From: Loxodes magnus
Lineage: Eukaryota; Ciliophora; Karyorelictea; Loxodida; Loxodidae
Assembly (NCBI GenBank): GCA_946699065.1
Contig: CAMPDV010000242.1
Coordinates: forward strand, 310,001 to 374,000
Direction: 5' to 3'
Length of the DNA: 64,000 bases
Each line of letters starts with the position of its first letter. Positions within the stretch are counted from its first letter, which is position 1. Both the position numbers and the translations under genes were made by a program. The notes below the pieces were generated by a model that had not been told where the DNA came from, did not search any database, and saw only the letters and a list, made by a program, of their open reading frames with translations. Shown here piece by piece: positions 2 through 58,579 of this stretch.

Positions 2-3000
2 GCAGATTAGACGGTGAGACTATGGGACGTCAAGACAGGTACCTGTAAGACCATGAGTGGTCTCACTAGTAATGTATGATCTGTGGCTATATCCAGTGAT
101 TCAGAGTTCATCGTATCGGGAAGTCATGATTATACGGTGAGACTATGCGACGTCAAGACAGGTACCTGTAAGACCATGAGTGGTCACACTAGTTATGTAT
201 GATCTGTGGCTATATCCAGTGATTCAGAGTTCATCGTATCGGTAAGTGCAGATACTACGGTGAGACTATGGGACGTCAAGACAGGTACCTGTAAGACCAT
301 GAGTGGTCACACTAGTTCTGTATTCTCTGTGGCTATATCCAGTGATTCAGAGTTCATCGTATCGGGAAGTGCAGATTAGACGGTGAGACTATGCGACGTC
401 AAGACAGTTACCTGTAAGACCATGAGTGGTCACACTAGTAATGTATGATCTGTGGCTATATCCAGTGATTCAGAGTTCATCGTATCGGGAAGTGCAGATT
501 AGACGGTGAGACTATGGGACGTCAAGACAGGTACCTGTAAGACCATGAGTGGTCACACTAGTAATGTATGATCTGTGGCTATATCCAGTGATTCAGAGTT
601 CATCGTATCGGGAAGTGCAGATTATACGGTGAGACTATGGGACGTCAAGACAAGTACCTGTAAGACCATGAGTGGTCACACTAGTTGTGTATATGCTGTG
701 GCTTTATCCAGTGATTCAGAGTTCATCGTATCGGGAAGTGCAGATTATACGGTGAGACTATGGGACGTCAAGACAGGTACCTGTAAGACCATGAGTGGTC
801 ACACTGATTATGTATATGCTGTGGCTATATCCAGTGATTCAGAGTTCATCGTATCGGGAAGTCATGATTATACGGTGAGACTATGGAACATCAAGACAGG
901 TACCTGTAAGACCATGAGTGGTCACACTGATTATGTATATGCTGTGGCTATATCCAGTGATTCAGAGTTCATCGTATCGGGAAGTGCAGATTATACGGTG
1001 AGACTATGCGACGTCAAGACAGGTACCTGTAAAACCATGAGTGGTCACACTAGTAATGTATGATCTGTGGCTATATCCAGTGATTCAGAGTTCATCGTAT
1101 CGGGAAGTCATGATTATACGGTGAGACTATGGGACGTCAAGACAGTTACCTGTAAGACCATGAGTGGTCACACTGATTATGTATATGCTGTGGCTTTATC
1201 CAGTGATTCAGAGTTCATCGTATCGGGAAGTTATTATTAGACGGTGAGACTATGGGACGTCAAGACAGGTACCTGTAAGACCATGAGTGGTCACACTGAT
1301 CATGTATATGCTGTGGCTATATCCAGTGATTCAGAGTTCATCGTATCGGGAAGTTATGATTATACGGTGAGACTATGGGACGTCAAGACAGGTACCTGTA
1401 AGACCATGAGTGGTCACACTAGTTATGTATATGCTGTGGCTATATCCAGTGATTCAGAGTTCATCGTATCGGGAAGTGCAGATTAGACGGTGAGACTATG
1501 GGACGTCAAGACAGGTACCTGTAAGACCATGAGTGGTCACACTAGTTGTGTATATGCTGTGGCTATATCCAGTGATTCAGAGTTCATCGTATCGGGAAGT
1601 CATGATTATACGGTGAGACTATGGGACGTCAAGACAAGTACCTGTAAGACCATGAGTGGTCACACTAGTTGTGTATATGCTGTGGCTTTATCCAGTGATT
1701 CAGAGTTCATCGTATCGGGAAGTGCAGATTATACGGTGAGACTATGGGACGTCAAGACAGTTACCTGTAAGACCATGAGTGGTCACACTGATCATGTATA
1801 TGCTGTGGCTATATCCAGTGATTCAGAGTTCATCGTATCGGGAAGTTATGATTATACGGTGAGACTATGGGACGTCAAGACAGGTACCTGTAAGACCATG
1901 AGTGGTCACACTAGTTATGTATATGCTGTGGCTTTATCCAGTGATTCAGAGTTCATCGTATCGGGAAGTGCAGATTAGACGGTGAGACTATGGGACGTCA
2001 AGACAGGTACCTGTAAGACCATGAGTGGTCACACTAGTTGTGTATATGCTGTGGCTATATCCAGTGATTCAGAGTTCATCGTATCGGGAAGTCATGATTA
2101 GACGGTGAGACTATGGGACGTCAAGACAGGTACCTGTAAGACCATGAGTGGCCACACTAGTTATGTATGATCTGTGGCTATATCCAGTGATTCAGAGTTC
2201 ATCGTATCGGGAAGTGCAGATTATACGGTGAGACTATGGGACGTCAAGACAGGTACCTGTAAGACCATGAGTGGTCACACTAGTAATGTATGATCTGTGG
2301 CTATATCCAGTGATTCAGAGTTCATCGTATCGGGAAGTGCAGATTATACGGTGAGACTATGCGACGTCAAGACAGTTACCTGTAAAACCATGAGTGGTCA
2401 CACTAGTTATGTATATGCTGTGGCTTAATCCAGTGATTCAGAGTTCATCGTATCGGGAAGTTATGATTAGACGGTGAGACTATGGGACGTCAAGACAGGT
2501 ACCTGTAAGACCATGAGTGGTCACACTAGTTGTGTATATGCTGTGGCTATATCCAGTGATTCAGAGTTCATCGTATCGGGAAGTCATGATTAGACGGTGA
2601 GACTATGGGACGTCAAGACAGTTACCTGTAAGACCATGAGTGGTCACACTAGTTGTGTATATGCTGTGGCTATATCCAGTGATTCAGAGTTCATCGTATC
2701 GGGAAGTAATGATTAGACGGTGAGACTATGGGACGTCAAGACAGGTACCTGTAAGACCATGAGTGGTCACACTAGTTATGTATATGCTGTGGCTTTATCC
2801 AGTGATTCAGAGTTCATCGTATCGGGAAGTCATGATTATACGGTGAGACTATGGGACGTCAAGACAGGTACCTGTAAGATCATGAGTGGTCACACTAGTT
2901 ATGTATATGCTGTGGCTTTATCCAGTGATTCAGAGTTCATCGTATCGGGAAGTCATGATTATACGGTGAGACTATGGGACGTCAAGACAGGTACCTGTAA

Positions 3001-58579: not shown

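What the first reader, a model, noticed from the sequence alone, without database searches (positions are those of the whole stretch)
14..58561. In-frame TGA sits in an aromatic column: possible TGA = Trp
At codon 22 the array uses TAT (Tyr), TTC (Phe), rarely TTA (Leu) and very often TGA. In the first 20 units I count 12 TAT, 7 TGA and 1 TTC. TGA is followed by TCT (Ser), giving V-W-S-V-A if TGA is Trp, which is the WD40 family consensus at this place. Random nonsense decay would not choose the one column where Trp is the expected residue. TGG also encodes the conserved W of W-D in each unit, so both codons would be in use.
Basis: partly seen in the sequence, partly recalled or inferred. Interest (0 to 1): 0.85.

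Follow-up and report, generated by a model that had tools for sequence, protein, structure and literature searches.

The report
WD40 satellite in a recoded ciliate
The window is a slice of an enormous tandem repeat, present in hundreds of thousands of copies in what is almost certainly the ciliate Loxodes magnus, whose unit is one WD40 protein repeat; this organism does read TGA as tryptophan (already known), but the repeat now looks more like satellite DNA than a working gene.

Summary
The window is one 123-bp WD40 array. TGA is not in "the one column": stop triplets occupy six, and TGA=Trp alone leaves 222 stops before the frame break. The host explains them. Its 705.7-Mb genome fits the Loxodes magnus macronuclear assembly (706 Mbp). 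Its eRF1 genes carry TAA/TAG at conserved Gln and end in TGA; in 20 kinases the invariant DxW Trp is TGG in 16, TGA in 4. This is the published karyorelict code (UAR=Gln, UGA=Trp or stop). The surprise is the repeat: at least 345,775 exact core copies, about 42.5 Mb or 6% of the assembly. Its four most variable codons match the four positively selected codons of fungal HNWD receptors; 1,537 of 1,598 stop triplets sit there. Other columns vary neutrally (35 N: 13 S). I read it as satellite DNA founded by a hypervariable WD40 gene; translation is not shown.

The parts
1..64000 (+). Part of a head-to-tail array of 123-bp units, each one WD40 repeat of 41 codons
   Evidence: on the host contig the array was read without interruption from C242:210,086 to 427,719
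11..58558 (+). 476 consecutive regular units in one WD40 frame; 19,516 codons without a break if TAA/TAG=Gln and TGA=Trp (this code has no unconditional stop, so openness alone proves nothing)
58559..58679 (+). The only irregular unit of the window (121 bp): two separate small deletions, breaking the frame
58680..64000 (+). Array continues, frame shifted relative to 11-58558
77..79 (+). First TGA of column 23 (hypervariable codon; Trp in table 27), context GTA TGA TCT GTG
   Evidence: column counts
8..10 (+). First TAG of column 41 (hypervariable codon; Gln in table 27), context GAT TAG ACG GTG
   Evidence: column counts
5750..6673 (+). 308-codon stretch read with table 27 (3 TGA=W, 1 TAA=Q, 3 TAG=Q); predicted WD40 beta-propeller
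35630..36364 (+). Longest ORF under the standard code (244 aa), WD40 by Pfam
38879..40477 (+). 13 units repeated without change 32 units (3,936 bp) downstream at 42815-44413: block duplication
   Evidence: coordinates worked out from unit numbers 316 and 348

Best explanation
The window is satellite DNA of a karyorelict ciliate, almost certainly Loxodes magnus. The unit is a single WD40 repeat. SHOWN: the host reads TAA/TAG as Gln and TGA as Trp in ordinary genes and ends its two eRF1 genes with TGA; the unit is a WD40 repeat; variation and stop triplets concentrate in four codons that match the four selected codons of fungal HNWD WD40 receptors; at least 345,775 exact copies of the unit's core exist; the other codons vary at the neutral ratio in the array read. 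INFERRED: the founder was a protein-coding WD40 gene whose blades were near-identical except at these four surface codons, and which used TGA (Trp) and TAG/TAA (Gln) there as legal codons. A block of blades was then amplified by unequal exchange and block duplication (one 32-unit step is visible). The founder's codon variants were carried along, so the 'stops' are fossil or current sense codons, not nonsense decay. Most copies are probably not translated now.
For: Host: 705,730,643 bp against 706 Mbp for the L. magnus MAC assembly. TAA/TAG at conserved Gln of eRF1, TGA at its end. TGA at conserved Trp of kinases. Host codon GC 0.332 in my sample of 5,913 codons against 33.5% CDS GC in the paper. 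Repeat: Pfam WD40, 6 stretches, E 2.1e-55; the table-27 reading folds with no alignment at pLDDT 90.5, pTM 0.87, best PDB match a WD40 propeller, TMq 0.95. The four most variable of 41 columns are 39, 21, 41, 23, 1 of 101,270 sets of four; HNWD selected codons are 7, 9, 25, 27 around constrained 8 and 26: same spacing. 1,537 of 1,598 stop triplets in 1,762 units lie there. Motif matches in nine prokaryotic WD40 loci hold W in 12 of 34 at column 23 and Q in 9 of 47 at column 41. Satellite: 345,775 exact cores on both strands, backwards control 0. Neutral: 35 N: 13 S, silent fraction 0.27 against 0.23-0.26 expected. Codon usage unlike host: log-odds -0.126 against +0.213.
Against: In the 217 kb of C242 that I read, no indel is shared by two or more units: the 6 irregular units are singletons, while 38 of 48 single-base variants in conserved columns are shared (Fisher p 0.0003). 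Pure satellite drift should also amplify frame-breaking indels. A 1-bp deletion did spread elsewhere, including 3 copies in the unread left part of C242, but has only 242 exact copies genome-wide. So the frame is kept better than I expect of junk, and some arrays have long standard-code frames (C626, 2,839 codons). No founder gene was found. No tool named the genome; identity rests on size, code and composition. The left end of the array and its flanking genes were not read.
Confidence: 0.75

Rival explanations
1. Live giant gene: the array is translated with table 27 into a protein of hundreds to thousands of WD40 repeats, with UGA and UAR decoded at diversifying surface positions.
For: Frame unbroken for 476 units in the window; 6 irregular units among 1,769 unit starts, none amplified in the part read; the table-27 reading folds well; variation sits at the interaction-face codons known from HNWD.
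Against: The stretch read without interruption, 217 kb, would encode over 70,000 residues and is frame-broken at the 6 irregular units. Neutral N:S in conserved columns. Disruptive changes are common: column-5 W to C in 219 of 1,762, column-40 D to Y in 151, column-37 G to W or V in 83. Codon usage unlike host. TGA:TGG 59,099:1.
Confidence: 0.15
2. Ordinary nonsense decay of a WD40 pseudogene in a standard-code organism: TGA, TAG and TAA are real stops that arose after the gene died.
For: Stop triplets of all three kinds; some lie in structural columns (TGA at Gly 37 in 51 of 1,762, TAA/TAG at Trp 5 in 5).
Against: The host is not standard-code. 96% of stop triplets sit in four hypervariable codons, where W and Q are common in other WD40 proteins.
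Confidence: 0.03
3. Assembly inflation: a modest array was multiplied by misassembly, so the copy number is not real.
For: The authors state that misassembly of low-complexity repeats likely causes the MIC/MAC size difference. The odd unit 58559-58679 carries two indels, as an unpolished seam might.
Against: 463 distinct units among 1,762 in one array; matches on many contigs and both strands. The paper says unassembled MIC and MAC reads hold similar low-complexity proportions.
Confidence: 0.05

Closest known systems
Karyorelict ambiguous nuclear code (NCBI table 27; Parduczia sp., Loxodes)
   Same: TAA/TAG=Gln, TGA=Trp at conserved positions, TGA also ends genes
   Different: No difference found; the context rule near the poly-A tail was not tested here
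Podospora HNWD/NWD WD40 domains with high internal conservation (het-d, het-e)
   Same: Near-identical WD40 units; variation concentrated in two pairs of codons flanking a constrained codon, 18 codons apart
   Different: Reactive HNWD alleles have about ten repeats, a NACHT domain and, by recall, the standard code; here units number hundreds of thousands, no partner domain was seen, and the codons include TGA/TAG/TAA
WD40 / beta-propeller proteins (PF00400; highly repetitive 2ymu; ODA16 5mzh)
   Same: Unit sequence and predicted fold
   Different: Copy number and arrangement as satellite DNA
Satellite DNA
   Same: Long head-to-tail arrays, many loci, both strands, a block duplication
   Different: The unit is a recognisable protein repeat whose frame is largely kept in the array read

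Membership tests
Karyorelict code (table 27) | UAA and UAG encode Gln | tested here: met
   eRF1 copies in C196 hold 20 and 21 in-frame TAA/TAG; for the first copy, conserved Gln of solved eRF1 (FGTLQGN, GRGGQSALRF, DQR, GFNQAIEL, SQEGSQF) are TAA/TAG here. Not every TAA/TAG aligns to Gln
Karyorelict code (table 27) | UGA encodes Trp inside genes | tested here: met
   20 top-ranked of 136 kinase matches: 8 of 13 TGA in Trp columns; invariant DxW 4 TGA, 16 TGG. The other 5 TGA are in variable columns. The eRF1 genes hold no in-frame TGA
Karyorelict code (table 27) | UGA also terminates | tested here: met
   both eRF1 copies reach TGA after DEDFL, where the protein family ends; two genes only
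Karyorelict code (table 27) | termination depends on nearness to the poly-A tail | not testable with these tools
   no transcripts held; statement taken from PMC11441545
WD40 repeat | profile match and propeller fold | tested here: met
   PF00400 E 2.1e-55; predicted fold and PDB match
HNWD-type WD40 with high internal conservation | near-identical units | tested here: met
   mean 95.3% identity to consensus over 520 units
HNWD-type WD40 with high internal conservation | hypervariability at the two codon pairs | tested here: met
   columns 21, 23, 39, 41 are the four most variable of 41
HNWD-type WD40 with high internal conservation | positive selection (dN/dS) at these codons | tested here: inconclusive
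   no codon-position bias in these columns (mean heterozygosity 0.34, 0.36, 0.42 for positions 1, 2, 3)
HNWD-type WD40 with high internal conservation | NACHT domain in the same gene | tested here: inconclusive
   31 NACHT matches in the genome (best E 6.7e-7, all over the Pfam cut-off), none within 1 Mb of the WD40 places that were listed; those lists are partial and the left flank of the C242 array was not read
Satellite DNA | high copy number in long head-to-tail arrays | tested here: met
   at least 345,775 exact cores; 217 kb read without interruption in C242
Satellite DNA | non-coding | tested here: inconclusive
   neutral N:S but no amplified indel in the part of C242 read; no expression data

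The most novel reading that the evidence does not exclude
The arrays are a working recognition repertoire: a genome-scale library of WD40 units differing at the four recognition codons, in which UGA and UAR are used as sense codons exactly at the diversifying positions. It would either be translated as giant receptors or serve as donor units for diversifying WD40 receptor genes by gene conversion.
Probability: 0.1. Interest if true: 0.92.

Novelty: new variant of a known kind. Interest (0 to 1): 0.6.

Why it matters
The genetic code question is settled and known. What is unusual is a satellite family of at least 42 Mb whose unit is a protein repeat with receptor-like hypervariable codons, in what appears to be the somatic genome of a ciliate. 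It gives a natural test of how an immune-type repeat turns into satellite DNA, and of whether stop-to-sense recoding lets such arrays stay open. It also warns that standard-code ORF calls would label most of it a pseudogene.

Tried and rejected
TGA=Trp as the sole fix: rejected, 222 stops remain before 58558. TAG as Tyr: rejected by the eRF1 Gln positions. Other frames: five frames of the window hold 1,013 to 1,973 stop triplets against 644 in the frame that carries WD40 up to 58558. Prokaryote or virus origin: an exact pattern found nothing in genome contigs or viral contigs, a protein search nothing in viral contigs and 9 prokaryotic loci with WD40 proteins 33-44% identical; the tool warns that records of the window's own genome may be left out; the phage and plasmid collections were not searched. 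Searching the own genome with the DNA consensus gave 0 matches because the tool skips very common words; the exact pattern then gave 345,775. Codon-position signature of diversifying selection: not seen. Synonymous TGG at column 23 as a sign of selection: 1 copy against 59,099 TGA; a single founder also explains this, so it is weak either way. 18S identification: one search gave no usable answer and one search did not complete; not tried again. tRNA-Trp(UCA): not looked for. Unit parses were mis-phased and are superseded; of its 1,768 spacings, 1,762 of exactly 123 were used and 6 dropped from codon counts (the 244 spacing holds one regular and one odd unit). In one search units longer than 139 bases were left out of the indel count, and two of the 19 loci overlap (L024, L034).

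Papers: PMC11441545, passages and section 8 in full; supplement not read. PMC1805685, PMC2873952, PMC12222747 and PMC4967479, passages only. 'WD40' occurs 0 times in the main text of PMC11441545; no paper in the library holds both 'Loxodes' and 'WD40'; listings showed no WD40 satellite in title or abstract start. The Peer Community Journal paper of Seah et al. 2022 was seen only as a reference.

Full report
WHAT IS THERE. The whole window is one head-to-tail array: period 123, 520 copies by Tandem Repeats Finder; 521 unit starts, 519 of 520 spacings exactly 123, one of 121 at 58559. 164 of 520 units are distinct and they average 95.3% identity to the consensus. One frame reads as WD40 (consensus [39 protein letters not shown]).

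STOPS ARE IN MORE THAN ONE COLUMN. In the 519 regular units of the window the frame holds TGA 256 (column 23), TAG 224 (41), TGA 16 (37), TAA 10 (39), TAA 4 (27) and TAG 1 (21); 145 of 519 units have none. Before the frame break the longest open run is 245 codons under the standard code; with TGA=Trp alone 327 codons, with 222 stops left; with TAG and TGA sense, 5,452; with all three sense, 19,516. The last figure is no evidence of coding, because in such a code every frame is open.

THE HOST. The window is C242:310001-374000 of a genome of 705,730,643 bases in 7,843 contigs. Two eRF1 genes (C196) carry 13 TAA + 7 TAG and 15 TAA + 6 TAG in frame, no TGA, and end in TGA. Read with table 27 the first aligns to solved eRF1 (4d5n E 7.4e-159; 1dt9, human by recall, E 8e-159) and has Gln where that protein has it in FGTLQGN, GRGGQSALRF, DQR, GFNQAIEL and SQEGSQF (alignment shown for 4d5n). 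Of 136 kinase matches I took the 20 best: 13 TGA, of which 4 in the invariant DxW column (the other 16 are Trp by TGG), 3 in a column with 8 Trp and 1 Phe, and 1 in a column with 13 Trp and 2 Phe; the remaining 5 are in variable columns. So TGA is Trp, TAA/TAG are Gln, and TGA also terminates. This is the karyorelict code, table 27. The Loxodes magnus paper gives a MAC assembly of 706 Mbp, 231 Mbp of it low-complexity tandem repeats, UGA as the only stop and also Trp, and CDS GC 33.5%; my host codon sample has GC 33.2%. I take the host to be L. magnus; no tool named it.

HOW BIG THE FAMILY IS. On C242 I read the array without interruption from 210,086 to 427,719, near the contig end at 427,843: 1,769 unit starts, 1,762 regular spacings, 463 distinct units. 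Three hits of a variant lie at 114,838-189,402 of the same contig, so it probably extends further left; that part was not read. An exact 36-base core (columns 25-36) occurs 153,444 + 192,331 = 345,775 times in the genome, the backwards control 0. At 123 bases each that is 42.5 Mb, 6.0% of the assembly, a lower bound for exact cores. The protein search gave 208 scored matches out of 128,946 first-look candidates, on many contigs; some lie in long standard-code frames (up to 2,839 codons in C626).

WHERE THE VARIATION IS. In 1,762 units the four most heterozygous of 41 codon columns are 39, 21, 41 and 23, with 44% of all heterozygosity; only 1 of 101,270 sets of four reaches this. In Podospora the four WD40 codons under strong positive selection are 7, 9, 25 and 27, flanking constrained 8 and 26 (PMC1805685, passages). 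Here 21/23 flank V22 and 39/41 flank D40 (V in 1,754 and D in 1,587 of 1,762): same pairs, same 18-codon spacing. 1,537 of 1,598 stop triplets lie in these four columns, and the units show 104 residue combinations there. In nine prokaryotic WD40 loci, motif matches have W in 12 of 34 at column 23 and Q in 9 of 47 at column 41 (only units that fit my search expression were counted). So TGA and TAG encode, by the host's code, residues that are normal at these places.

IS IT TRANSLATED? Against: outside columns 19-24 and 39-41 there are 35 amino-acid-changing and 13 silent single-base variants; the silent fraction 0.27 matches the neutral 0.23-0.26 (p 0.5-0.6). Structural residues change often: W5 to C in 219, D40 to Y in 151, G37 to W or V in 83 of 1,762. 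Array codon usage does not follow the host (mean log-odds -0.126 against +0.213; Glu GAG 100% against 23%). At column 23, exact TGA:TGG is 59,099:1 genome-wide whereas the host sample uses TGA for 20% of 66 Trp codons. For: the 6 irregular units in the part of C242 read are singletons, while 38 of 48 substitutions are shared (Fisher p 0.0003); this could mean frame selection, or that the six are sequencing errors. In 19 other loci from the protein search, a 1-bp deletion at column 34 recurs 32 times among 528 unit spacings, so frame-breaking units can spread; genome-wide that exact deletion has only 242 copies, 3 of them in the unread left part of C242. These 19 loci were the best protein matches and are not a random sample.

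FOLD. A 308-codon stretch read with table 27 (3 TGA=W, 1 TAA=Q, 3 TAG=Q) folds without any alignment at pLDDT 90.5 and pTM 0.87 (two of the five models failed, at 34-38). Its best PDB match is the WD40 protein ODA16 (5mzh, TMq 0.95). This shows that the reading is compatible with a propeller, not that it is made.

MECHANISM. The simplest account is a founder WD40 gene with near-identical blades and HNWD-like variable codons, using TGA and TAR legally there. A run of blades was amplified by unequal exchange (13 identical units recur after 32 units) into a satellite that now drifts. The founder gene and its partner domains were not found; NACHT gives 31 matches, none within 1 Mb of the listed WD40 places, which are a partial list.

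VERDICT. Observation confirmed; code interpretation right but known and incomplete; 'coding' not shown. The interest lies in the satellite and its receptor-like variable codons.

Noticed in passing
G000:C196:19713 and 54613 (L038, L039): Two eRF1 genes about 35 kb apart read G-R-A-Q-NIKS where the solved eRF1 has G-T-A-S-NIKS; the Q is a TAA codon.
   Followed up: partly
C242 about 405-427 kb (L014-L016): A subfamily of units reading D-D-K-T-V-K-L-W-D, the classic WD40 consensus (recalled), with TAG at column 21 and TTA at column 23, or TAA at column 21 and TAT at column 23.
   Followed up: no
window 58559-58679: The only two deletions of the window sit in one unit; may be an assembly seam.
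   Followed up: partly
C242 array, conserved columns: Variant spectrum is strand-skewed: 12 G>T against 4 C>A distinct variants; not normalised for base counts.
   Followed up: no
G000:C184: 77 of the first 100 listed copies (of 242) of a 1-bp-deleted unit core are on this contig, so a frame-breaking variant has been amplified locally.
   Followed up: partly
whole array: GC about 44% in a genome whose coding sample is 33%.
   Followed up: no
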